Source: Kiloniella spongiae (GTDB taxonomy: Bacteria; Pseudomonadota; Alphaproteobacteria; Kiloniellales; Kiloniellaceae). Taken from it: a DNA stretch of 64,000 nucleotides. Made by a program: the position numbers and the translations under genes. Location of the stretch: assembly GCF_001026905.1 (NCBI RefSeq), contig NZ_LAQL01000007.1, positions 62,001-126,000 of the forward strand. Direction: 5' to 3'. The notes under the pieces were generated by a model that saw only the letters and a program-made list of their open reading frames with translations, was not told the origin of the DNA and did no database searches. Position 1 is the first letter of the stretch, and every line of letters starts with the position of its first letter. Below are positions 12,582-37,700 of this stretch, one piece after another.

Positions 12582-13073
12582 GCAGGAAAGTTCCTTTAAA
12601 AGCATGGTGAAGGCTATACCTGGATCAATCTAGCTCTTCGCCGCACTTTTGGAGACATCAATGTCCAACACAAGGATAAGCGCTATCGATCTAGGCGGGA
12701 TTATTACGCAATCCCATCAGAGCGAAAAAACATGTGCCGAAACACCACGATTTCTCGCGAAGTGACGCTTGAATATAGGAAGGGTCTCTTTGGGTCAAGC
12801 CCGATCCGCCGATATCTTTTGCATGGCGCCTATGCGTTGACAGTCATAGGTGGCAGGATTGGATACTGATTTATTGAAATATTTGGAGGGGTAAAGACAC
12901 AGGATACTCTCTCGCCGGCGATAAAAAGTTGCCTGTTCCAACCCCTTCGACTACCGTATTCGCCATAATAATATAAGGAGGTTCCGGACTTTTAGTTGCT
13001 TTTAGTTTCGGGCCAATAATTCTGGGACGTATTGACGAGGCAAGTTCTTGGCTCGTTTTTCAAGGGGCGAAAA
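12582..13073. other. Long divergent intergenic region, leader of the ABC-importer cluster
   Basis: About 490 bases with no convincing gene. On the plus strand TTGACA (12837-12842) with a GATACT 19 bases later could be a weak promoter for the importer. Downstream, GGAGGGGT (12884-12891) can pair with ACCCCTTC about 50 bases on, so the roughly 200-base leader may be structured. No known riboswitch was recognised. The helicase promoter must also lie here but could not be pinned down. Confidence 0.4.
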
Positions 13074-14261
13074 ATGAAAAAAAACAAACATCTGTTACCA
13101 ATGTTGATGGCGGGTGCAATGGCACTTAGTGCCGGTTTTGCATCTCCGGCTCTTCAGGCTGCGGAACCTGTTAAAATTGGTATGATCACAACATTATCCG
13201 GCGGAGGCGCTAGCCTTGGTATTGATATCCGTGACGGGTTCATGCTTGGCCTGAAAATGAAAGATGGCAAACTTGGAGGCGTTGAAACGCAAGTTATCGA
13301 AGTTGATGATGCCCGTAAGGTCGAAAACGCCAAGCAGATTGCAACGCGTATGATCAAGCAGGACGATGTTGATATTGTAACGGGGATTGTCTGGTCCAAC
13401 CTGGCGATGGCTGTTGTTCCAAGTGTGACTCGTGCAGGCAAGTTTTACATCAGCCCCAATGCAGGTCCTTCTGCTTTGGCGGGTAAGAAATGCCATGAAA
13501 ACTATTTTAATGTCGCATGGCAAAATGACAATCTGCACGAAGCTGCTGGGCAATATGTGACCGATAAGGGCTTGAAAAATGTGTATCTCATGGCCCCGAA
13601 CTATCCGGCTGGTAAAGATGCGATTGCCGGATTTAAGCGGTTTTATAAAGGTAACGTCGCGGGCGAAGTTTATACGAAACTTGGCCAAGTTGACTATGCA
13701 GCAGAGCTGGCGAACCTGCGTGCGGCGAAACCGGATGCCGTTTATTTCTTCTTGCCAGGTGGTATGGGTATCAATTTTGTGAAGCAATATTCGCAGGCTG
13801 GTCTTAGTGCTGATACGCCGCTTTTCGGCCCAGCGTTCTCATTTGACGAAGGTATCCTGAAGGCTGTTGGTGATGCGGCTATTGGTGTTTACAACACATC
13901 ACAGTGGAATAAGGACATTGATAATGCGGCAAATACATCTTTTGTAGAGGCATTCAAAGAAGCTTATGGGCGGAACCCATCTCTCTACGCCAGTCAGGGA
14001 TATGATGCTGCGCTTTTAATTGATTCAGCAATTACTTCTGTTGGCGGGGATCTGTCTGATGACGACAAGTTCCGCGATGCCCTTCGCAAGGCTGAGTTTG
14101 ATTCAGTCCGTGGCAACTTCAAATTTGGATCAAATCAGCACCCGATCCAGGACATCTATGTACGTGTTGTTCACAAAGATGGAGACACTGTCACCAACAA
14201 AATTGTGAGCAAAGTCTTCACGGCTCACCAGGATGCTTACGCGACAGAATGTAAGCTTTAA
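13074..14261 (+). CDS. ABC transporter substrate-binding protein (branched-chain amino acid type)
   Basis: 395 residues. The start is placed at ATG 13074, preceded by AAGGGGCG, because it opens a clean signal peptide: MKKNKHLLPMLMAGAMALSA with cleavage near LQA-AEP. A TTG 42 bases upstream is also in frame but spoils the signal. The mature protein is a Peripla_BP_6 (LivJ-type) fold: VKIGMITTLSGGGASLGIDI, NAKQIATRMIKQDDVDIVTG, and a C-terminal QGYDAALLIDSAI segment. It should capture the ligand in the periplasm for the permeases encoded downstream. The ligand may not be an amino acid, since the last gene of the cluster is an arylformamidase-like hydrolase. Confidence 0.9.
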   Translation: MKKNKHLLPMLMAGAMALSAGFASPALQAAEPVKIGMITTLSGGGASLGIDIRDGFMLGLKMKDGKLGGVETQVIEVDDARKVENAKQIATRMIKQDDVDIVTGIVWSNLAMAVVPSVTRAGKFYISPNAGPSALAGKKCHENYFNVAWQNDNLHEAAGQYVTDKGLKNVYLMAPNYPAGKDAIAGFKRFYKGNVAGEVYTKLGQVDYAAELANLRAAKPDAVYFFLPGGMGINFVKQYSQAGLSADTPLFGPAFSFDEGILKAVGDAAIGVYNTSQWNKDIDNAANTSFVEAFKEAYGRNPSLYASQGYDAALLIDSAITSVGGDLSDDDKFRDALRKAEFDSVRGNFKFGSNQHPIQDIYVRVVHKDGDTVTNKIVSKVFTAHQDAYATECKL

Positions 14262-14301
14262 GTATCGCCAAAGCCTAATGATAGGCCCTTAATTAATGAG
14301 T

Positions 14302-14364
14302 ATCAGGACTGGTTTCCATCTGGCGCAAGCGTTTTGCGCACTCAGAATGACAACCGGTCCTGAT
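14302..14364 (+). repeat. Long stem-loop between binding-protein and permease genes
   Basis: Outer arms ATCAGGACTGGTT (14302-14314) and AACCGGTCCTGAT (14352-14364) pair over 13 bases with one G-U. A second hairpin, GCGCAA/TTGCGC (14323-14328 with 14334-14339), sits inside. There is no T-run, so it is more likely an mRNA-stabilising or attenuating element that keeps the binding protein more abundant than the permeases. Confidence 0.65.
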
Positions 14365-14427
14365 TTTATGTGAGGGTGTCTGGCTTGGTCATGTCTGGTC
14401 GTATCTGGCCATATTTGGAATGTATTT

Positions 14428-15354
14428 ATGTTAACGATAGAGCTGTTTTTTGAACAGTCGCTGAACGGGCTTCAACAAGGAGTAATGCTTTTCCTTATGG
14501 CAGCGGGGTTGACGCTGGTTTTTGGAATTATGCACCTCATTAATCTGGCCCATGGTTCTCTCTATATGATCGGGGCTTATGTCGCAGCCAGTGTAACGCA
14601 GGCAAGTGACAGTTTTACCCTTGGTATTTTGGCTGCTTTAGTTGCGGCAGGGCTGACGGGAATGTTGTTGGAGTTCTCTGCGTTGCGAAGATTATATAAC
14701 CGTGATCACCTTGATCAGGTGCTCGCAACCTTTGGCATGATACTGTTTTTTAATGAGCTCGTTAAAATTCTGTGGGGGCCTCAAGCTCTCTTTCTATCAA
14801 CGCCGGAATTCCTTTCAGGAACACTTGAATTTATTCCCGGCGCTCCGTATCCATCCTATCGGCTGTTTATTATTGGGGCGGGCCTTGTTGTGGCTTTGCT
14901 TTTGCGTCATCTGATCATTCACACCCGGGTTGGTATGTTGATCCGGGCGGGGGCAACACACCGTGAAATGGTGGGTGCCCTAGGGGTGAATATTGATGAG
15001 CTTTATACAATTGTCTTCGGGTTAGGGGCGATGCTTGCGGGCCTTGCCGGGGCGTTGGCTGGTCCGATGCTGGCGGTAGAGGTTGGGATGGGAGAAAAAA
15101 TTCTGATCCTTACCTTTGTGGTGATTATTATCGGGGGAATTGGCTCTGTCCGTGGTGCATTGGTTGGTGCGTTACTGGTGGGGATGGTTGATACCTATGG
15201 GCGTGCCTTTTTACCGACCATTATGCGAGAACTTCTTGACCCTGCATCTGCGGATACCGTTGCCGCTTCCATGTCATCTGTTGCTATCTATGTGTTGATG
15301 GCTGTGGTGTTGATCTGGAAACCCCGTGGTTTGTTTCAGGCATACGGGAGCTAG
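14428..15354 (+). CDS. Branched-chain-type ABC transporter permease (LivH-like)
   Basis: 308 residues with eight or so membrane helices. The N-terminus QSLNGLQQGVMLFLMAAGLT and FGIMHLINLAHGSLYMIGAY are hallmark LivH segments. GAMLAGLAGALAGPMLAVEV matches the cytoplasmic coupling-loop region that contacts the ATPases. It forms the inner-membrane channel with the next gene product. The ATG follows a weak ribosome site (GGAATG), consistent with lower expression than the binding protein upstream. Confidence 0.92.
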   Translation: MLTIELFFEQSLNGLQQGVMLFLMAAGLTLVFGIMHLINLAHGSLYMIGAYVAASVTQASDSFTLGILAALVAAGLTGMLLEFSALRRLYNRDHLDQVLATFGMILFFNELVKILWGPQALFLSTPEFLSGTLEFIPGAPYPSYRLFIIGAGLVVALLLRHLIIHTRVGMLIRAGATHREMVGALGVNIDELYTIVFGLGAMLAGLAGALAGPMLAVEVGMGEKILILTFVVIIIGGIGSVRGALVGALLVGMVDTYGRAFLPTIMRELLDPASADTVAASMSSVAIYVLMAVVLIWKPRGLFQAYGS

Positions 15355-15362
15355 ATGGTCAT

Positions 15363-16379
15363 ATGTTTCTTAGTAAAATTATCGGCTCTGATGCCAGTTT
15401 TAGAACTAAAATCGTTACCTTGTTGGGGCTTTTGATCCTCTTTGCCGTTCCACTTCTTGCAAACCTCTTCAATGAACCTTTCCTGGTTGATATCGCAAGC
15501 CGGATCCTGATTTATGCCCTCGTGGCTGTAAGTTTGGATCTCATCCTTGGGTATGGTGGGATGGTTAGCTTTGGTCATGGTGCTTTTCTGGGTTTGGGGG
15601 CCTATGTCGTTGGTATCTTGACCCATCATAGCTACGAAGGAACCGCGGTGGCCTTTTTGCCGGGGGACTGGCAGGGGACAACACAGGCATTTGTTCAATG
15701 GCCACTTGCAATGATCCTTAGCGGTTTGTTGGCATTGATTATCGGGGCCTTGAGCCTGCGAACATCAGGCGTTTATTTCATCATGATAACGTTAGCCTTT
15801 GCCCAGATGCTGTACTTTTTCATGATCTCTATTCCGACCTATGGTGGTGAAGACGGCCTTAATATCTGGGAGAGAAGTGAGATCCCTCTGTTGGATCTTT
15901 ATGACGCCAAAAGCTTTTATTTCATTTGTTTGGTTCTTCTGCTTTTGTGTCTTTGGTGTTGTTCGCGGATTGTAAAAAGTCGCTTCGGCATGGTTCTGCG
16001 CGGATGCCGCCAAAATGAAGTCAGAATGAAAGCTTTGGGATATCCTGTATATCGCTACAAGCTGATGGCTTTTGTTCTGTCAGGCATGATTGCCGGACTT
16101 GCAGGTGCGCTTTTGGCGAACCATACCGAGTTTGTTGGCCCCGGCCTGATGCATTGGACCCGTTCTGGAGAAATTATGATTATGGTTATCCTCGGGGGAA
16201 TGGGGTCACTCATAGGGCCTGTTCTCGGTTCCGCGACTTTGTTGATGATGGAAGAAGTTTTGGCAGGTCTGACAGAACACTGGATGATTTTTCTGGGACC
16301 GATGCTGGTCTTGATTGTTCTCTTCGCGCGGAAAGGGCTTTATGGGCTTTTGATCGGGAAAGGGACAGATAATGGCTGA
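15363..16379 (+). CDS. Branched-chain-type ABC transporter permease (LivM-like)
   Basis: 338 residues, multi-spanning. Family signatures are ISRILIYALVAVSLDLILGYGGMVSFGHGAFLG near residues 42-75 and GCRQNEVRMKALGYPVYRYK (EAA-like coupling loop) near residue 215. It heterodimerises with the LivH-like subunit. It starts eight bases after the previous stop and overlaps the ATPase gene by eight bases, so it is co-translated with it. Nothing unusual in length or composition. Confidence 0.92.
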   Translation: MFLSKIIGSDASFRTKIVTLLGLLILFAVPLLANLFNEPFLVDIASRILIYALVAVSLDLILGYGGMVSFGHGAFLGLGAYVVGILTHHSYEGTAVAFLPGDWQGTTQAFVQWPLAMILSGLLALIIGALSLRTSGVYFIMITLAFAQMLYFFMISIPTYGGEDGLNIWERSEIPLLDLYDAKSFYFICLVLLLLCLWCCSRIVKSRFGMVLRGCRQNEVRMKALGYPVYRYKLMAFVLSGMIAGLAGALLANHTEFVGPGLMHWTRSGEIMIMVILGGMGSLIGPVLGSATLLMMEEVLAGLTEHWMIFLGPMLVLIVLFARKGLYGLLIGKGTDNG

Positions 16380-17118
16380 TCCAATTCTTGAAGTAATTAG
16401 TCTGACAAAATGTTTTGGGGCTATTGCCGCGAGTGATGGCCTGACTTTTTCGGTAAAACGCGGAACTATTCACGGATTAATTGGCCCCAATGGTGCCGGT
16501 AAATCCACGGCGATTGCACAACTGTCGGGTGAACTACAATCTGATACAGGGCGTGTTCGTTTTGACGGACAGGATGTGACCCGCTGGGCCGTGGATAAAC
16601 GGGCGAGATCGGGATTGCAGCGGTCATATCAGATAACCAGTTTGCTACCGGAATTCACCGCTGAAGATAACGTGGCAATGGCGATACAGTCTCAGCAAGG
16701 TCATAGTTTCCGCTTTTGGGAGAATGCGCGTAAGGACAATAGCTTGCGTACGCCGTCACGGAAAATACTGGAACGTGTCGGTCTCTCTGATTTTGCAGAT
16801 AATCCTGCCATGGATCTGGCGCACGGACAGCAAAGACAGCTGGAGCTGGCCATGGTTTTGGCAACAGCGCCGTCTATGTTGTTACTGGATGAACCGATGG
16901 CAGGCATGGGGCAGTCGGAATCCCTTCGTATGATGGAACTTTTACGTCCTCTGAAGGGGGATGTCACCATGTTGCTAGTGGAACATGACATGGATGTTGT
17001 TTTTGCTCTTGCCGATATGATCACAGTCTTGGTCAAAGGACAGGTCTTGTTAACGGGAACACCTGACGAGATTAAGAACCATCCCGAGGTACGGCGTGCT
17101 TATTTGGGGGACTATTAA
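16372..17118 (+). CDS. ABC transporter ATP-binding protein (LivG-like)
   Basis: 248 residues. Walker A is GPNGAGKST (about 37-45), the signature motif is the LivG-type variant AHGQQRQLELAMVLA instead of LSGGQ, Walker B is MLLLDEPMAGMG, and the switch His is in LLVEHDMDVVF. It hydrolyses ATP to power import through the two permeases. It starts inside the end of the livM-like gene and stops immediately before the second ATPase. Confidence 0.93.
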   Translation: MADPILEVISLTKCFGAIAASDGLTFSVKRGTIHGLIGPNGAGKSTAIAQLSGELQSDTGRVRFDGQDVTRWAVDKRARSGLQRSYQITSLLPEFTAEDNVAMAIQSQQGHSFRFWENARKDNSLRTPSRKILERVGLSDFADNPAMDLAHGQQRQLELAMVLATAPSMLLLDEPMAGMGQSESLRMMELLRPLKGDVTMLLVEHDMDVVFALADMITVLVKGQVLLTGTPDEIKNHPEVRRAYLGDY

Positions 17119-17829
17119 ATGGGTGATTTAAAGCTCTCAGGCGTTGAAACCAGTTATGGCACCAGTCAGGTTCTGTTCGGCGTTGATCTGGAAATCAAGT
17201 CCGGAGAGGTTGTAACCCTGATGGGCCGCAATGGTATGGGGAAAACCACCACCGTTCGTTCGATTATGGGACTGACACCTGCGAAAAGAGGCGAAATATC
17301 TTTTGGTGGTGTCGTGATTCAGAATTCTCGAAGTCATAATATAGCGCAGTTGGGTATAGGGTATGTTCCCGAAGGGCGACAGGTTTTTTCGAACCTCACC
17401 GTGTTGGAAAATTTGGTTGCCACCGCAGCTAATCACGCGGGTGTTGATGATCCCTGGACTGTTGATATGGTCATGGATCTGTTCCCACGGCTCCGAGAGC
17501 GAGCCAAGCAATATGCCAGAACGCTTTCAGGTGGAGAACAACAAATGTTAGCGATTGGCCGTGCCTTAATGACGAACCCGAGTTTTATGATCTTGGACGA
17601 AGCGACAGAAGGGCTTGCACCGATTATTCGCGATGAAATATGGCACGTTCTGGAACACAATCTCAAAAAATCCGGACAGGCAATTCTTGTGATTGATAAA
17701 CATCCGGAAGCAATGGCCCGTATTGCTGATAGGCATTATGTTATGGAAAAAGGTCGGGTTGTCTGGTCTGGTGTTTCAGAAGAACTTCTGGCGAATAAAG
17801 ATATGCAGCATCGGTATCTGGGGGTGTAA
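17119..17829 (+). CDS. ABC transporter ATP-binding protein (LivF-like)
   Basis: 236 residues. Walker A is GRNGMGKTT, the typical LivF spelling; QVFSNLTVLENL precedes the helical domain. The signature is LSGGEQQMLAIGRAL, Walker B FMILDEATEGLAP, and the usual switch region reads ILVIDKHPEAM. Together with the LivG-like protein it forms the ATPase heterodimer. Its ATG directly follows the stop of the previous gene with no gap, indicating one polycistronic mRNA. Confidence 0.93.
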   Translation: MGDLKLSGVETSYGTSQVLFGVDLEIKSGEVVTLMGRNGMGKTTTVRSIMGLTPAKRGEISFGGVVIQNSRSHNIAQLGIGYVPEGRQVFSNLTVLENLVATAANHAGVDDPWTVDMVMDLFPRLRERAKQYARTLSGGEQQMLAIGRALMTNPSFMILDEATEGLAPIIRDEIWHVLEHNLKKSGQAILVIDKHPEAMARIADRHYVMEKGRVVWSGVSEELLANKDMQHRYLGV

Positions 17830-23823: not shown

Positions 23824-25992
23824 TTAGGATATCTTCTTCCATACAGAAAGCTCTGCAAGCGTATGCTGGTATTTACGCTTGGTTTCCCGAATAACAAAAG
23901 GAACATCGACGGGTTGATCTGTGAGCTCAAACTCTGGAGCAAGTGCATCGCGCAATCCGTCCAGTGTTGTGTAGTTCTCACCGGTGTTCGCTTTAAAACC
24001 ACCCAGCCAGTTATCTCGCTCAGTAAAGTCTTTTAACCAGGTGTAGGGGGATGCGAGGATCAAGTAACCACCAGATCTTATGCGATCCTTTATTGAGGCA
24101 ATGAATTTTTGGGGATCATAGAGCCGATCAATAAGGTTACCGGCGAAAACGAGGTCGTAGTTCGTATATTTAGAGGCAAGATTACAGGCATCTCCCTGCA
24201 TGAAGCTTATTTTGTCTTTGATATCTGGATAACCCTCAAAATCATCCAGATTGATTTCTTTGTAACTGACCAACTCACCTTCATCCTGGATGGTGTAGCG
24301 TTGTGTTCCTTTTTGTTGTAGTGCTGATGGGGCCTGAATCAACCGGGCAGAAAAATCGATCGCATCAACATGGTTGTATGCTTTTGCCAGTTCAAAAGAT
24401 GCACGCCCCGTTGCGCAACCAAGATCAAGTGCTCTTTCTCGTCGAGCTTCTTTTGTATGTGTCAGGCAAATTTGTGCACAGGCAACGGGGAAGTTCGGAA
24501 CCTTAAAGTATTCCTCGCCATAGTGGAATTCGATATATTGTGCGACGATATCGTCGGTCTCATACATGTTAACCTCGGTTTCGTGGAGCTCTGGTGCTTC
24601 GACGTAGCGCAGGCCTGAATATTGAAAAAAGTGGCGACGAAAAGCATATCGGGAATCTTTGAGTGCATAATTCCCTGTAGAAATCCAACAACCGCCTTTG
24701 AAGACATTGTGTTTACCATCAAAGGTCGGCGTTGAAAAATCGTCATAGATCGGATGTACTGCAAAGCCTTCATATCCGTCAATTGCAGTTTCTGTCCATT
24801 GCCAGACATTCCCGATTATATCAAAAAATCCTTGAGCGAATTCATTTCTGTTTACTGGGCAGGGTGACATTTCCTGCTCCAGATTAATATTTCCGGGGGC
24901 TTTGTGCCATGTGGATTGATCGTTAGGCTCCAGTGTGCGGAGCTGATACCACTCTGCTTCTGTTGGCAATCTAATTGAGAGTCCGGTTTTCTCTGACTTC
25001 CAATTGCAAAATGCCTTGGCTTCAAGGTAGTTGATATCGACTGGCCAGTTCCAAGGCATTGGAATGACTTCAAGCATTGTCCGGTATCTGAATTCACCGT
25101 TATGTTTGACCCAGTAGGCAGGCGCCTTTGCTTCGCGATAGGAAACCCATTTCCAGCCTTCTTCGGTCCAAAAATTTTCTCGACCGTAACCATTGTCTTT
25201 TACAAACTCAAAATACTCTTGATTTGAAACTAGATATTTACTGGCTTTGAAATCTTTGATCTCAACTTTATGATATCCATATTCGTTATCCCAACCAAAG
25301 TGCTGGTTGTTTTGACCTTTTCCTAACGTCAGCTTGCCGCCGTTTATGGGGAGGAGATCATTTTTGGGTGCTTCACCACTGCTTTGGCAAATCTTGCTCC
25401 AGATACGGTGTGGACGAATTTTATCCAACGGAAGTTCCCGTATGAGAACCGCTGAGGTTTCAAGGTGGATACGTTCGTGCTCAATCCCCATCATAATGAT
25501 CCACAAAGGATCTGTTTGCTTGATGGGGACGGAAAGGTCACAGGTGCGAATAAAGTGGTCAACCAGTGTTCTTACTTTATCCCGGTAAGCTTTTACTTTT
25601 TTCGGGGTTGGCCAAGTGTAATTATTTTCATTTAGATCATCCCAGGACATTTCATCGACGCCGATAGCCAGCGTTGATTCCAGCGTTTCGTCAATTCGAG
25701 TATCTATAAATTTGGCAACGTTAAGTTTATTGATAAAGAAAACAGCCGTATGTCCGTAATAAAAAATCAAGGGATGGCGCAGTGAATTGGCCCGGGTATA
25801 AAAAGCATTGTCTCCTTTAAGGCACTCAAAAAGCGTTTCATAAAGGCTGAATGTCTTGTGGAAATAGTCGAGTATCTCCTGACGTTTTTCTTCCGGATTT
25901 CCTTGATCAAGAATGGTCGTATGTGTTTTTAGTAAGTTACTGTCTGAAAGGATAATACTGTTATCTTGGTGGTGTACGGCATCGGGTGACAT
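23824..25992 (-). CDS. ovoA: 5-histidylcysteine sulfoxide synthase / mercaptohistidine methyltransferase (OvoA)
   Basis: 722 residues, the full-length three-domain OvoA. Domain 1 (about 1-200) is DinB-like with the iron-binding H-x3-H-x-E at 172-178 (HERIHLE) and an upstream His at 81 (YYGHTAVF). Domain 2 (about 215-470) is a formylglycine-generating-enzyme fold with RLPTEAEWYQLR and FDIIGNVWQWTETA. Domain 3 (about 480-722) is a SAM methyltransferase with ALDLGCATGRASFELA. OvoA joins cysteine sulfur to C5 of histidine using O2 and iron, and its methyltransferase later N-methylates the imidazole, making ovothiol A, a redox-protective thiol. The required C-S lyase (OvoB) is not obvious nearby. 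Confidence 0.95.
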   Translation of the reverse strand: MSPDAVHHQDNSIILSDSNLLKTHTTILDQGNPEEKRQEILDYFHKTFSLYETLFECLKGDNAFYTRANSLRHPLIFYYGHTAVFFINKLNVAKFIDTRIDETLESTLAIGVDEMSWDDLNENNYTWPTPKKVKAYRDKVRTLVDHFIRTCDLSVPIKQTDPLWIIMMGIEHERIHLETSAVLIRELPLDKIRPHRIWSKICQSSGEAPKNDLLPINGGKLTLGKGQNNQHFGWDNEYGYHKVEIKDFKASKYLVSNQEYFEFVKDNGYGRENFWTEEGWKWVSYREAKAPAYWVKHNGEFRYRTMLEVIPMPWNWPVDINYLEAKAFCNWKSEKTGLSIRLPTEAEWYQLRTLEPNDQSTWHKAPGNINLEQEMSPCPVNRNEFAQGFFDIIGNVWQWTETAIDGYEGFAVHPIYDDFSTPTFDGKHNVFKGGCWISTGNYALKDSRYAFRRHFFQYSGLRYVEAPELHETEVNMYETDDIVAQYIEFHYGEEYFKVPNFPVACAQICLTHTKEARRERALDLGCATGRASFELAKAYNHVDAIDFSARLIQAPSALQQKGTQRYTIQDEGELVSYKEINLDDFEGYPDIKDKISFMQGDACNLASKYTNYDLVFAGNLIDRLYDPQKFIASIKDRIRSGGYLILASPYTWLKDFTERDNWLGGFKANTGENYTTLDGLRDALAPEFELTDQPVDVPFVIRETKRKYQHTLAELSVWKKIS

Positions 25993-34079: not shown

Positions 34080-34511
34080 CTAAGCTTCAAGTTCTCGGTT
34101 AAGAACCAAAGATGTTTTCAATTCGCTTACGACAGTATTGGCAGAAAGTCTGTTGCGCACATCATTGAGGGCTTCGGGGGTTTCTGCCATGACCTCGACC
34201 AGGAGGTCTGGTTCGCCAGCCAGGGAATAACACCGGATTACTTCCGGAAAACTGGATATTTCGGTGATTAAATCTTTTGCAGGTGTATGTGTCAGGTTCA
34301 AAAACAGGAAAGCCCGGAAACCACGGGTTGATGCATTTTTTAGCTCTACTCTGTATCCAGTAATGATTTGATCGTCTTCGAGACGTTGCAGACGGTGGCG
34401 AACAGTTGATCTGGCAATATTGGTTTGTGTCGCAATACCTTTGATAGTTTCGCGCGCGTTGTTACGCAATACCTGTAAAATCTGGCGATCAGTTTTATCT
34501 AAATCACGCAT
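34080..34511 (-). CDS. Lrp/AsnC family transcriptional regulator
   Basis: 143 residues from ATG 34511 (a TTG at 34541 is also open). The helix-turn-helix is LDKTDRQILQVLRNNARETI plus GIATQTNIARSTVRHRLQRL; the RAM domain follows with CYSLAGEPDLLVEVMAETPE. It is divergent from the large kinase/M23/PLP fusion gene with about 156 bases between start codons, and is its most likely regulator. An amino acid or amine effector would fit a catabolic PLP enzyme. Confidence 0.9.
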   Translation of the reverse strand: MRDLDKTDRQILQVLRNNARETIKGIATQTNIARSTVRHRLQRLEDDQIITGYRVELKNASTRGFRAFLFLNLTHTPAKDLITEISSFPEVIRCYSLAGEPDLLVEVMAETPEALNDVRNRLSANTVVSELKTSLVLNRELEA

Positions 34512-34667
34512 CAAAATGCCAATATCTTCTGCCAATTGCAAATACCGGGCAGAGAATATCAGGCACCTGTCATAAAAACAATCAAACGCGCATAATGGCG
34601 AAAGATGTGGGCGTTTATTTTTTTTATACTGCTTTCAAATAATTAACTGCAGTACAGGGTGCATGAT

Positions 34668-37600
34668 ATGTCTGTTGATAAACTCCATGTTTATACTGAA
34701 AGTGAAGCCGAAGCTCTTTTTCAGGAGTTTTATGGTATTGCAGCAAAGGCTTACAGCTTGCCAAGTGAGAGGGATCAGAACTTTCGAATGGATGCTGTGG
34801 AGGATAAGAGCTTTGTTCTTAAGCTCTATGCACCAGAGACAGATCTATGCTGGTTGGACGCACAGGATCAGTTGCTAATTGAACTGGCAAGTCAGGATGC
34901 TGGTCTACCGTTACCGAGAATAATTGAAAACAGAAAAAAAACGACAACCCATAAGATCACGGATTGCGACGGACAGGTTAGATTCATCCGCGCATTGACC
35001 TGGTTGAATGGAGAAGTTTGGAATAAAGTAGCACAGTCGCAGGATTTGGATTTCTCTCAAATTGGGGCATTGATGGCGCGTATGGATCTGGCGTTAAAAT
35101 CTTTTATGCATGCCGGGGCCGACAGAACCTTTTTGTGGGATATTGCTCAAGCATCGGCACACACGGCTTTTATTGACTTGATTGAGGATGTCGCCATACG
35201 CGATGTCGTAGCATCTATTCTGGATAAATTTTCAAAAGAAACGGCGAGTGCTTTGAGCCGATTGCCACGGCAAATCATTCACAACGATGCAAATGACTAC
35301 AACATTCTCGTGGATAAACGGGGCGAGATTAGTGGTCTTATTGATTTTGGTGATTTCATTCAAAGCCATCGGATATGCGAAGTCGCTGTTGCTTGTGCCT
35401 ATGCCATGTTGGCCCAGAAGGATCCCGTCGGACGGATTTGCGATGTTGTGTCGGGGTATCACAGGGTAAATCCGCTTCAGGAAGAAGAGCTTGCCATTCT
35501 TTATGATTTGATCAGAGTGCGTCTAGCTGAATCATCCTGTATGGCAGCCCAGCAATATTCAGCCAATCCGGAAAACGAATATTTGTTGATCAGCCAGAAA
35601 GACATCCGGGATCTTCTGCTCAAGATGGAGCAAATCAATTCACAGGTTGTTCATTATCGTTTGCGTGACGTCTGTGGTTACGAGGCCTGTGCCGGATCAC
35701 GGAAGCTGGAACAGTGGCTTTTGACCAATGCCGATAAAATCGGACCAATTTGCCAGCACAATCTTTCGCCTGAAAATGTACTGGTTCTCGACCTCTCTCC
35801 CCTGTCAGTAAACGACGAGGGGATCCCCCGCAGTGCTGAAGAAGCCACTGATGTTATCTTTGCTATGATGAAGGAAGCGGATACTGCCGTTGGGATTGGC
35901 AGCTATCTGGAAGATCGTGATGTGTATAAAGGGGACTTTTTTGAGACAGTAGATCCGGACGAAAAACGCACCGTTCATCTGGGTATTGATCTCTTCCTTC
36001 CTGCCTATGAGCCGCTCTATGCGCCGTTAGATGGTATTGTCCGTGTGCATAATGATAACACGCGGGATTATGACTATGGCCCGGTTGTGATTCTAGAGCA
36101 CCAGACAGATGAGGGTCAGGTATTCTACACAAAATACGGTCACCTGAGCCGGACATCTTTGGAGCTTTGGGAGGATGGCAAGGCCTTTAAGAAGGGAGAT
36201 GTAATCGGCTATCTCGGCCCCTATCCTGAAAACGGAAACTGGGCCCCCCATGTTCATTTCCAGCTTTTGCTAGATCTGATGGGAATGGAAAACGATGTCT
36301 GCGGTGTGGCTGCGCGCAGCGAAATCAATGTCTGGTCATCTGTTTGCCCAAGTCCAAATCTCATTCTCGGTATGAAAAGCAAATGTCAGGGAGATGTGTC
36401 GAGAAGCCCTAAAAGCATCCGTGAAGAACGCGCCAGGCATTTAAGTCCGAACCTGAGTTTGTCTTACGCGGAGCCTCTTAAAATTGTTCGCGGTGAAGGA
36501 CAGTATCTCTATACTGAGCAGGGTGAAGAGTATTTGGATATGGTGAATAATGTTTGCCATGTAGGGCATTGTCACCCTCGTGTTGTTGCTGCGGCCACCG
36601 GGCAAATGCCTGTTCTCAATACAAATACGCGCTATATGCACGACAATATTGTCAACTATGCGCGTGAACTGTTAGCAACCTTTCCGGACTCTCTTGAAGT
36701 TTGCTTTTTTACGAACTCTGGCAGTGAGGCCAATGACCTCGCGCTGCGCCTGTCGCAGAACTATACGGGGCAGAAGGATATGCTGATTGTTGATCACGCA
36801 TACCATGGAAACCTGACGTCTCTCATTGACCTCAGCCCTTATAAGTTCAATCGCAAAGGGGGCAAGGGCTGCCCGGATCATGTGAAAATCTGTCCGATGC
36901 CTGATGGATATCGTGGTTCGGTAAAATGGGATGATCCTGATTGTGGCGAGAAATACGCTGATATGGCAATTGAACAGCTAGAGGCATTACAAAAACAGGG
37001 GCGGAAACCTGCTGCCTTTATTGCAGAATCTTTGCTGGGGTGTGGTGGGCAGATTGTTCTGCCAGATGGGTATCTGAAACGTGTTTATGGGGCCGTACGA
37101 AGTGCGGGTGGACTTTGTATTGCGGATGAAGTTCAAGTTGGTTTTGGCCGCATCGGAAGCCATATGTGGGGCTTTGAGCTTCAGGATGTGGTGCCGGATA
37201 TTGTTACCCTTGGAAAGCCGATCGGAAATGGTCATCCCCTGGGGGCTGTTATTACAACCCGGGCGGTTGCGGATGCTTTTTTCAATGGTATGGAATATTT
37301 TAATACTTTTGGCGGAAACCCGGTTTCCTGTGCAATCGGGCGGGAAGTGTTACAGGTAATCCGGGATGAACGTTTGCAACATAACGCTGGAAAAGTCGGG
37401 CAACATATTCTGGACGGCCTGACAGAAATGATGGATCTCTATCCGCTCATCGGTGAAGTTCGCGGGCGGGGACTCTTTATCGGGGCTGAACTGGTGTATG
37501 ATCGGGACACCTTGGAACCAGCAACGGCTGAGGCCAGCAAAGTTGTTAATTTTATGAAAGAAAGAAATATTCTACTTTCAACGGATGGTCCCTTGGACAA

Positions 37601-37700
37601 TGTCGTGAAGATCAAACCGCCGGTTTGCTTTACGATGGAAAACGCAGATCAATTCCTGAAAGAGTTTGATGACTGTATGGCTGTGATTAGTCAGGCCTGA
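34668..37700 (+). CDS. Trifunctional fusion: APH/HYKK-like kinase, M23 peptidase domain, class III PLP phospho-lyase-like
   Basis: 1010 residues from ATG 34668 (AGGG eight bases upstream; GTG 34659 also open). Domain 1 (about 10-330) is a choline-kinase/aminoglycoside-phosphotransferase fold with catalytic loop HNDANDYN (about 204-211) and metal Asp in GLIDFGD. Domain 2 (about 425-540) is LytM/M23 with HLGID (His 436, Asp 440) and HVH near 528. Domain 3 (about 575-1010) is a class III aminotransferase fold: FTNSGSEAND, DHAYHGN, and LGKPIGNGHPLG with PLP Lys about 850. In animals, hydroxylysine kinase and the phosphohydroxylysine or phosphoethanolamine phospho-lyases match domains 1 and 3. A phosphorylate-then-eliminate route for an amino alcohol is therefore likely. 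The M23 role is unclear, and no signal peptide is seen. Confidence 0.9.
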   Translation: MSVDKLHVYTESEAEALFQEFYGIAAKAYSLPSERDQNFRMDAVEDKSFVLKLYAPETDLCWLDAQDQLLIELASQDAGLPLPRIIENRKKTTTHKITDCDGQVRFIRALTWLNGEVWNKVAQSQDLDFSQIGALMARMDLALKSFMHAGADRTFLWDIAQASAHTAFIDLIEDVAIRDVVASILDKFSKETASALSRLPRQIIHNDANDYNILVDKRGEISGLIDFGDFIQSHRICEVAVACAYAMLAQKDPVGRICDVVSGYHRVNPLQEEELAILYDLIRVRLAESSCMAAQQYSANPENEYLLISQKDIRDLLLKMEQINSQVVHYRLRDVCGYEACAGSRKLEQWLLTNADKIGPICQHNLSPENVLVLDLSPLSVNDEGIPRSAEEATDVIFAMMKEADTAVGIGSYLEDRDVYKGDFFETVDPDEKRTVHLGIDLFLPAYEPLYAPLDGIVRVHNDNTRDYDYGPVVILEHQTDEGQVFYTKYGHLSRTSLELWEDGKAFKKGDVIGYLGPYPENGNWAPHVHFQLLLDLMGMENDVCGVAARSEINVWSSVCPSPNLILGMKSKCQGDVSRSPKSIREERARHLSPNLSLSYAEPLKIVRGEGQYLYTEQGEEYLDMVNNVCHVGHCHPRVVAAATGQMPVLNTNTRYMHDNIVNYARELLATFPDSLEVCFFTNSGSEANDLALRLSQNYTGQKDMLIVDHAYHGNLTSLIDLSPYKFNRKGGKGCPDHVKICPMPDGYRGSVKWDDPDCGEKYADMAIEQLEALQKQGRKPAAFIAESLLGCGGQIVLPDGYLKRVYGAVRSAGGLCIADEVQVGFGRIGSHMWGFELQDVVPDIVTLGKPIGNGHPLGAVITTRAVADAFFNGMEYFNTFGGNPVSCAIGREVLQVIRDERLQHNAGKVGQHILDGLTEMMDLYPLIGEVRGRGLFIGAELVYDRDTLEPATAEASKVVNFMKERNILLSTDGPLDNVVKIKPPVCFTMENADQFLKEFDDCMAVISQA

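What the first reader, a model, noticed from the sequence alone, without database searches (positions are those of the whole stretch)
34668..37700. Single protein joins a small-molecule kinase, an M23 peptidase domain and a class III PLP enzyme, facing an Lrp regulator
Seen: one open frame with APH-type catalytic residues (HNDANDYN), complete M23 metal residues (HLGID and HVH) and a PLP Lys in LGKPIGNGHPLG. Known: hydroxylysine kinase and the hydroxylysine/ethanolamine phospho-lyases are the separate animal counterparts of the first and third domains. Inferred: phosphorylate-then-eliminate catabolism of an amino alcohol. The middle peptidase domain, intact in its metal ligands but with no signal peptide, is the puzzle: it may release the substrate from a modified peptide, or may serve only as a scaffold.
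Basis: partly seen in the sequence, partly recalled or inferred. Interest (0 to 1): 0.7.

Follow-up and report, generated by a model that had tools for sequence, protein, structure and literature searches.

The report
Kinase–M23–phospholyase fusion, probably for hydroxylysine
One bacterial protein carries a small-molecule kinase, a peptidase-like domain with an intact metal site and a phosphate-eliminating enzyme; its gene neighbours in some other bacteria suggest that it breaks down hydroxylysine, a building block found in collagen.

Summary
One frame, 34659-37700 (+), 1013 aa, joins APH kinase, M23 and class III PLP domains, with a divergent Lrp gene. The architecture is already catalogued as NF004799/PRK06148 'hypothetical protein'. 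The PLP domain is of phospho-lyase type: 53% identity and TM 0.95 to human ethanolamine-phosphate phospho-lyase. Phosphorylate-then-eliminate is well supported.

The substrate is best read as 5-hydroxylysine from collagen, not ethanolamine. In relatives the gene lies beside trans-3-hydroxyproline-dehydratase-like genes (two lineages), a saccharopine dehydrogenase (one locus), and glycosidase genes that fit Glc-Gal-hydroxylysine. The window's genome has a hydroxyproline cluster. This is inference: 53 of 80 loci show none of these neighbours.

M23 metal and catalytic residues are invariant in 53 of 53 fusions, and the domain also occurs as a stand-alone gene in 7 of 398 genomes. But the sister family NF004800 keeps the domain with all its active-site histidines lost, 7 of 7. 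I favour a cytosolic peptidase or amidase, at modest confidence.

The parts
34659..37700 (+). whole fusion gene, 1013 aa; GTG start at 34659 or ATG at 34668
   Evidence: NF004799 1313 bits
34779..35429 (+). APH-type kinase domain (Pfam stretch, aa 41-257); folded kinase region is about aa 14-338
   Evidence: Pfam APH 66.9 bits; AlphaFold kinase model pLDDT 94.2
35280..35303 (+). kinase catalytic loop HNDANDYN (aa 208-215); D210, N212, N215 invariant, H208 is H in 46 and Y in 7 of 53; second motif D229, G231, D232 invariant
35664..35903 (+). linker between kinase and M23 domain (aa 336-415)
   Evidence: 2 of 80 positions invariant
35973..36266 (+). M23 metallopeptidase-like domain (Pfam stretch, aa 439-536)
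   Evidence: Pfam M23 52.8 bits; a profile of the region finds solved M23 peptidases, best 2hsi E 6.7e-10
35976..35990 (+). HLGID, metal ligands H440 and D444 (roles by analogy with M23 peptidases, recalled)
   Evidence: 53 of 53 conserved
36135..36146 (+). YGHL, H495 (catalytic position by analogy with LytM, recalled)
   Evidence: 53 of 53 conserved
36249..36257 (+). HVH, H531 and metal ligand H533 (roles recalled); Q535 follows and is also invariant
   Evidence: 53 of 53 conserved; H531 lies inside a fetch pattern, H533 does not
36477..37676 (+). class III PLP domain, phospho-lyase type (Pfam stretch, aa 607-1006)
   Evidence: Pfam 245 bits; 6tor E 5.6e-152; TM 0.95
37215..37217 (+). Lys853, the PLP lysine by its motif
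   Evidence: 53 of 53
34080..34541 (-). Lrp/AsnC-family regulator gene, divergent
   Evidence: Pfam; divergent and next to the fusion in 10 of 10 Kiloniella-type and Thalassospira loci L039-L048

Best explanation
The protein is a cytosolic catabolic enzyme that takes 5-hydroxylysine, released from collagen-type proteins, through two or three steps on one chain. The kinase domain phosphorylates the 5-hydroxyl from a nucleoside triphosphate. The PLP domain eliminates ammonia and phosphate to give 2-aminoadipate-6-semialdehyde, which enters lysine metabolism by oxidation or by the saccharopine route. The M23 domain most likely acts first, as a metal-dependent cytosolic peptidase or amidase that frees hydroxylysine from a short peptide (collagen has hydroxylysine next to glycine, and several M23 enzymes cut at glycine; both recalled). 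Shown by sequence: the three domains, the catalytic residues, the phospho-lyase family of the PLP domain, the conserved M23 site. Inferred: the substrate, the order of steps, the M23 reaction. Lrp control in Kiloniella and Thalassospira is inferred from the divergent gene.
For: Phospho-lyase: nearest solved structures are human ETNPPL (510 bits) and bacterial A1RDF1 (332 bits), the next match of any kind having 188 bits (best 60 of 186 shown); Foldseek TM 0.95 and 0.94. Hydroxylysine: of 80 named loci, 4 have a proline-racemase-family gene directly upstream with the Cys/Thr pair of trans-3-hydroxyproline dehydratase (L053, L070, L088 and, from another phylum, L110; 3 of the 4 scanned by NCBIfam, closest to that family). 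One (L117) has an AlaDh/PNT-family gene and a saccharopine dehydrogenase directly downstream. Three Bacteroidota loci (L091, L110, L113) have a GH63-type gene adjacent, L110's being nearest to YgjK; Rhizobiaceae loci carry another MGH1-like glycosidase and a sugar-type ABC importer, and 5 a GH42 beta-galactosidase. Collagen hydroxylysine carries Glc-alpha1,2-Gal-beta (PMC8537180, passages). None of these queries hit 15 M23-less loci. The window's genome has 4-hydroxyproline epimerase (584 bits, cut-off 376) clustered with a T3LHyp-dehydratase-like gene and D-amino-acid and ketoglutarate-semialdehyde dehydrogenase-like genes, these three below cut-off; a saccharopine dehydrogenase 44% identical to L117's; and a piperidine-6-carboxylate dehydrogenase frame (625 bits, cut-off 730). 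M23: invariant site, lowest nonsynonymous change of the three enzyme domains in 3 of 4 comparisons, stand-alone genes.
Against: The nearest characterised enzyme acts on phosphoethanolamine, and the animal hydroxylysine enzymes are in no collection I could search. By lineage the telling neighbours are few: two for the dehydratase, one for saccharopine dehydrogenase. The window's genome has no PF22422 glycosidase. Rhizobiaceae and Bacteroidota glycosidases are only about 24-27% identical to each other over part of their length and their sugars are untested. The dehydratase genes score below the NCBIfam equivalog cut-off (391-422 against 540). The sister family NF004800 does without the M23 histidines. 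The piperidine-6-carboxylate dehydrogenase frame is interrupted in this assembly, and no match to L117's AlaDh/PNT gene was found in the 15 kb around the saccharopine dehydrogenase.
Confidence: 0.55

Rival explanations
1. The same two-step chemistry acts on ethanolamine or 1-amino-2-propanol, giving acetaldehyde or propionaldehyde; the M23 domain is incidental.
For: Nearest solved PLP relative is human ethanolamine-phosphate phospho-lyase and the next is bacterial A1RDF1. The kinase profile's best solved match is 6ef6, E 1e-12, titled microcompartment-associated aminopropanol kinase. The window's genome has no EutB match, so it may lack the classical ethanolamine route.
Against: In the PLP tree A1RDF1 groups with the M23-less forms (92/91), human ETNPPL with the M23-containing ones (99/95) (A1RDF1 is a long branch, and animals have both an ethanolamine and a hydroxylysine member, PMC9283133, passages, so this does not settle it). 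Among the neighbours scanned none was named ethanolamine permease or CoA-acylating aldehyde dehydrogenase; L050 does have a formaldehyde-dehydrogenase-family gene. No ExaC acetaldehyde dehydrogenase reaches its cut-off in the genome (best 444, cut-off 900).
Confidence: 0.27
2. The M23 domain is only a scaffold or a metal-dependent regulatory domain holding kinase and lyase together. The M23 fold resembles the sugar-PTS IIA fold (recalled), which can bind zinc and regulates a kinase without hydrolysing anything.
For: NF004800 proteins keep the domain in place with H440, H495, H531 and H533 lost in 7 of 7; an Asp stays at the D444 column in 3 of 7. Several relatives fuse or pair kinase and lyase without it.
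Against: H440, D444, H495 and H533 are invariant in 53 of 53 across several phyla; M23 has more invariant positions (28 of 155) than the kinase (13 of 316). Stand-alone M23 genes of this subfamily occur in genomes without a close phospho-lyase (5 of 7). The alpha NF004800 loci have an S58 peptidase and an oligopeptide importer downstream (Pfam on L193, same gene clusters in L194 and L196, one genus), as if another peptidase had taken over.
Confidence: 0.35
3. The PLP domain is an ordinary aminotransferase or racemase and the kinase acts on an unrelated sugar or antibiotic.
For: NF004800 and many other NCBIfam matches are named aminotransferase; the kinase fold is shared with amicoumacin, spectinomycin and aminoglycoside kinases.
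Against: Both phospho-lyases outscore every other PDB match by over 140 bits. Kinase and lyase are fused or adjacent in a number of genomes, as expected of consecutive steps.
Confidence: 0.05

Closest known systems
NF004799 / PRK06148 (NCBIfam 'hypothetical protein', 1015 positions)
   Same: Full-length match, 1313 bits over the cut-off of 1128; same three domains.
   Different: No function is assigned there.
NF004800 / PRK06149 ('aminotransferase', 972 positions)
   Same: Kinase, middle domain and PLP lyase in the same order; kinase and PLP residues kept.
   Different: Below cut-off for the window (732 against 973); its middle domain has lost the M23 histidines (7 of 7).
Human ethanolamine-phosphate phospho-lyase ETNPPL/AGXT2L1 (6tor), its paralogue AGXT2L2 (PHYKPL) and the hydroxylysine kinase
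   Same: PLP domain 53% identical, TM 0.95; nests within the M23-containing clade. AGXT2L1 and AGXT2L2 act on phosphoethanolamine and phosphohydroxylysine (PMC9283133, passages).
   Different: Separate proteins in animals, no M23 domain (recalled); PHYKPL and the kinase could not be compared here.
A1RDF1 phospholyase of Arthrobacter (5g4i)
   Same: PLP phospho-lyase fold, 40% identity.
   Different: 446-aa chain without the other domains; groups with M23-less forms in the tree.
Microcompartment aminopropanol kinase (6ef6) with a phospho-lyase partner (partner recalled)
   Same: Amino-alcohol kinase by its title, best solved match of the kinase profile.
   Different: Foldseek TM 0.62-0.65 and 14% identity; a separate protein, microcompartment-associated by its title.
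M23 peptidases (lysostaphin, LytM, ShyA)
   Same: Metal and catalytic motifs; profile hits.
   Different: Window domain has no export signal and an invariant ENGxW...HxHxQ segment; the two alignments printed (2hsi, 6jmx) lack the ENGxW part.

Membership tests
NF004799 / PRK06148 | score above curated cut-off over the whole length | tested here: met
   1313 bits, cut-off 1128, positions 10-1012 of 1015
NF004800 / PRK06149 | score above curated cut-off | tested here: not met
   732 bits, cut-off 973
PLP phospho-lyases (ETNPPL/A1RDF1 type) | closer to phospho-lyases than to aminotransferases, with PLP lysine | tested here: met
   6tor 508, 5g4i 331, next 188 bits; Lys853 invariant
PLP phospho-lyases (ETNPPL/A1RDF1 type) | elimination of phosphate and ammonia from a phosphorylated amino alcohol | not testable with these tools
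   needs an assay
5-phosphohydroxylysine phospho-lyase (PHYKPL) | orthology to the animal enzyme | not testable with these tools
   its sequence was not found in the PDB searches; only ETNPPL was compared
Hydroxylysine kinase | APH-type kinase motifs | tested here: met
   D210, N212, N215, D229 invariant in 53; Pfam APH; common to APH kinases, so not specific
Hydroxylysine kinase | phosphorylates 5-hydroxylysine | not testable with these tools
   needs an assay
M23 peptidase | HxxxD, catalytic His and HxH residues | tested here: met
M23 peptidase | exported protein (usual for characterised members; recalled) | tested here: not met
   no hydrophobic N-terminus in the window protein or in 7 stand-alone genes (highest 19-residue mean in the first 60 residues 0.89)
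M23 peptidase | peptide hydrolysis | not testable with these tools
   needs an assay
trans-3-hydroxyproline dehydratase (neighbour gene c38) | Cys/Thr catalytic pair | tested here: met
   4 of 4; human Cys104/Thr273 from PMC9309405 passages
trans-3-hydroxyproline dehydratase (neighbour gene c38) | NCBIfam equivalog cut-off | tested here: not met
   408, 422 and 391 bits against 540 for the 3 of 4 scanned
Aminopropanol microcompartment system | shell protein genes nearby | not tested
   neighbours were only partly scanned; none of those scanned was named a shell protein

The most novel reading that the evidence does not exclude
The M23 module is a new kind of cytosolic, non-cell-wall M23 enzyme that frees hydroxylysine from collagen fragments, and the fusion is a three-step enzyme turning hydroxylysyl peptide into aminoadipate semialdehyde, ammonia and phosphate. 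It would be the centre of a widespread, undescribed bacterial pathway for (glycosylated) collagen hydroxylysine. The animal lyases would come from this M23-containing branch without keeping the peptidase.
Probability: 0.3. Interest if true: 0.78.

Novelty: new variant of a known kind. Interest (0 to 1): 0.6.

Why it matters
Collagen is a very abundant animal protein (recalled), and I found no account of how bacteria use its hydroxylysine by a kinase/phospho-lyase route: the listings, over the held papers only, showed none. If right, an unnamed family seen in at least eight bacterial phyla or phylum-level groups gets a function, and a cytosolic M23 enzyme becomes testable in isolation because stand-alone versions exist. 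The sister family with a degenerate M23 domain gives a natural control for catalytic against structural roles.

Tried and rejected
Foldseek with the full-length model returned PLP enzymes only in the 50 rows shown, so it said nothing about the M23 domain. The kinase alone had no PDB match by single sequence; the 36-sequence profile did. Scanned neighbours of M23-less forms and of stand-alone M23 genes gave no consistent pathway. The listings of paper searches showed no paper on the bacterial fusion; one search was badly worded. 'PRK06148' occurs in one held paper, as a domain label of a Mycoplasma bovis lipoprotein in a table, without discussion in the passage shown (PMC8249566). The 2012 paper on hydroxylysine kinase and the phospho-lyases is not held (cited in PMC9283133 and PMC8154272, passages); it may mention bacterial fusions. 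YgjK as a GH63 alpha-glycosidase is from PMC7263609 (passages). Distances between the active sites could not be measured because I saw no model coordinates.

Weak points of my own analysis: the 80 loci were fetched by similarity to the M23 region and the patterns contain ENGxW...H and E[DK]RxVY, so E524, N525, W528, H531, E418, R420 and Y423 were partly selected for; H440, D444, H495, H533 and Q535 were not. For A2 I used 52 of 80 loci (under 88% identity, 960-1080 aa). Outside A2, the four fusions L009, L010, L012 and L013 keep the same histidines and Asp, but L009 has Trp at the Y493 column. In 79 of 80 loci the frame covers all three domains (L095 stops at query residue 914, L073 at 982); in L102 it matches residues 23-570 only. 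In one search L114 was labelled M23-less by my naming rule although it is a three-domain protein; the 'changes' counts of that call are affected, the branching is not. One search's gene calls were length-greedy; redid them with codon usage.
Full report
Observation. Pfam places an APH kinase at residues 41-257, Peptidase_M23 at 439-536 and class III aminotransferase at 607-1006. The Lrp/AsnC gene at 34080-34541 is divergent. The whole protein matches NF004799/PRK06148 'hypothetical protein' above its cut-off. The genome is probably of a Kiloniella relative: locus L039, K. litopenaei, is 92% identical.

PLP domain. Human ethanolamine-phosphate phospho-lyase (508 bits) and A1RDF1 phospholyase (331 bits) lead the PDB search, the next being a racemase at 188 bits (best 60 of 186 shown). 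The AlphaFold model of the full protein (53 sequences; pLDDT 89, pTM 0.80) overlays 6tor with TM 0.95 by target and 53% identity. The elimination step is therefore well founded, though no assay was possible.

Kinase. D210, N212, N215, D229 and D232 are invariant in 53 of 53 and H208 is His in 46 and Tyr in 7. A profile of 36 kinase regions finds, best first, 6ef6 (E 1e-12) and a homoserine kinase (8e-12). Foldseek lists 6ef6, titled microcompartment-associated aminopropanol kinase, at rank 8 after amicoumacin, homoserine and spectinomycin kinase chains. This fits an amino-alcohol or amino-acid hydroxyl as acceptor but does not fix it.

Distribution. A scan with the M23 region found 558 relatives, of which 80 were kept. 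In 79 of the 80 one frame covers kinase, M23 and lyase (two of these cut near the end); in L102 the frame matches only kinase and M23. They span Pseudomonadota, Actinomycetota, Acidobacteriota, Bacteroidota, Rhodothermota, Planctomycetota, Thermodesulfobacteriota, a MAG filed under Myxococcota, and SAR324. In 190 genomes of the window's class, 4 (the window's own included) pass the NF004799 cut-off; others fuse kinase and lyase without M23 or hold them as neighbours. One genome also has M23 plus lyase without kinase.

Tree. Among 58 PLP domains the M23-containing forms, one M23-lyase and human ETNPPL form one group (99/95); A1RDF1 and 16 M23-less forms form another (92/91), and two further M23-less forms lie outside both (L114 there is a mislabelled three-domain protein). 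The tree links the human enzyme to the M23-containing branch, but since humans have both a phosphoethanolamine and a phosphohydroxylysine member (PMC9283133, passages) it does not settle the substrate.

Gene context. In Rhizobiaceae the gene sits among a LacI regulator, dehydrogenases, a sugar-type ABC importer and an MGH1-like glycoside hydrolase, or with a GH42 beta-galactosidase in 5 loci. In three Bacteroidota loci a GH63-type enzyme is adjacent, that of L110 being nearest to E. coli YgjK (2.3e-73 to 3w7s), and in Maribacter (L113) a GH2 beta-galactosidase follows. Directly upstream in L053, L070, L088 and L110 is a proline-racemase-family gene with the Cys/Thr pair of trans-3-hydroxyproline dehydratase (4 of 4; the human pair from PMC9309405, passages); the 3 scanned are nearest to that family, below its cut-off. 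The first three are one lineage by the tree (L053 and L070) and by 86-88% identity of the dehydratase, L110 another phylum. In the planctomycete L117 an AlaDh/PNT-family gene and a saccharopine dehydrogenase follow. Counting GH63/MGH1, GH42, GH2, dehydratase and saccharopine-type hits, 27 of 80 loci have at least one, 20 of them Rhizobiaceae. The same queries gave no hit in 15 M23-less, 7 stand-alone and 6 NF004800 loci, and, apart from LacI and SDR in L169, none in 9 further intact fusion loci; the last is a result against generality. Glc-alpha1,2-Gal-beta on collagen hydroxylysine is described in PMC8537180 (passages). One molecule, Glc-Gal-hydroxylysine, would explain alpha-glucosidase, beta-galactosidase, amino-alcohol kinase, phospho-lyase and lysine-pathway genes together. 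That is an inference from few lineages; the neighbours I scanned in Flavobacteriia other than Maribacter, SAR324, Acidobacteriota and Kiloniella were uninformative.

Window genome. It has a cluster with 4-hydroxyproline epimerase (584 bits, cut-off 376), a Cys/Thr dehydratase-like gene (343 bits, cut-off 540), and D-amino-acid dehydrogenase-like and ketoglutarate-semialdehyde-dehydrogenase-like genes, both below cut-off; a saccharopine dehydrogenase-like gene; a piperidine-6-carboxylate dehydrogenase frame, 625 bits over positions 114-475 (cut-off 730), interrupted upstream; no EutB, no ExaC over cut-off, no PF22422 glycosidase. So it seems able to use collagen hydroxyprolines and could use aminoadipate semialdehyde.

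M23 domain. H440, G442, D444, Y493, G494, H495, H531, H533 and Q535 are invariant in 53 of 53. The domain has 28 of 155 invariant positions, against 68 of 419 in the lyase and 13 of 316 in the kinase. Nonsynonymous differences per site from the window are, for M23/lyase/kinase, 0.006/0.019/0.093 (L039), 0.034/0.102/0.201 (L043), 0.060/0.144/0.208 (L044) and 0.230/0.155/0.324 (L046); synonymous sites are near or past saturation in most, so I compare pN, not ratios. Stand-alone genes of 205-298 aa by my gene calls occur in 7 of 398 genomes searched in the phylum and have no hydrophobic start. In 5 of these 7 no close phospho-lyase was found; two have one of 40-42% identity elsewhere. Against this, all 7 NF004800 proteins over cut-off keep the domain's place but none of the four histidines; an Asp remains at the D444 column in 3 of 7. 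In their alpha members (three genomes, one genus) an S58 peptidase, a LysR gene and an oligopeptide importer follow (Pfam on L193, same clusters in L194 and L196). My reading is that the window's subfamily has a working cytosolic hydrolase, replaced in the sister family, while the barrel also has structural value. The reaction is unknown; hydroxylysyl peptide or amide cleavage is the most economical guess.

Verdict. A real, well conserved, database-known but functionally unnamed fusion. The chemistry of two domains is well supported, the hydroxylysine substrate is likely but unproven, and the M23 role is open with a testable lead.

Noticed in passing
window 23824-25992 (-): 722-aa frame that by eye looks like an OvoA-type ovothiol synthase with a C-terminal methyltransferase; not searched.
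   Followed up: no
L161:8131-9646 and L162:8357-9863: A phosphomethylpyrimidine-kinase-type gene (Pfam on L161) overlaps the start of a stand-alone M23-subfamily gene by my gene calls, perhaps translationally coupled.
   Followed up: partly
L163:9396-11332: A stand-alone M23-subfamily gene follows an MFS transporter gene with 2 bases between them.
   Followed up: partly
L191, L192, L195 downstream of the NF004800 gene: In the non-alpha genomes a conserved gene follows the degenerate-M23 fusion within two genes; in L191 it is a peptidyl-arginine/agmatine deiminase family protein.
   Followed up: partly
L202 (G000:C11:19629-20717): Piperidine-6-carboxylate dehydrogenase frame lacks its first 113 model positions in this assembly; described only.
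   Followed up: partly
L051:5773, L078:6752, L086:10010: An M81 (MlrC-type) metallopeptidase-family gene follows the fusion in two SAR324 loci and a related MAG (Pfam on L078; tblastn).
   Followed up: partly
window 13032-17829: Branched-chain-amino-acid-type ABC importer operon, by eye; about 17 kb from the fusion, no link shown.
   Followed up: no
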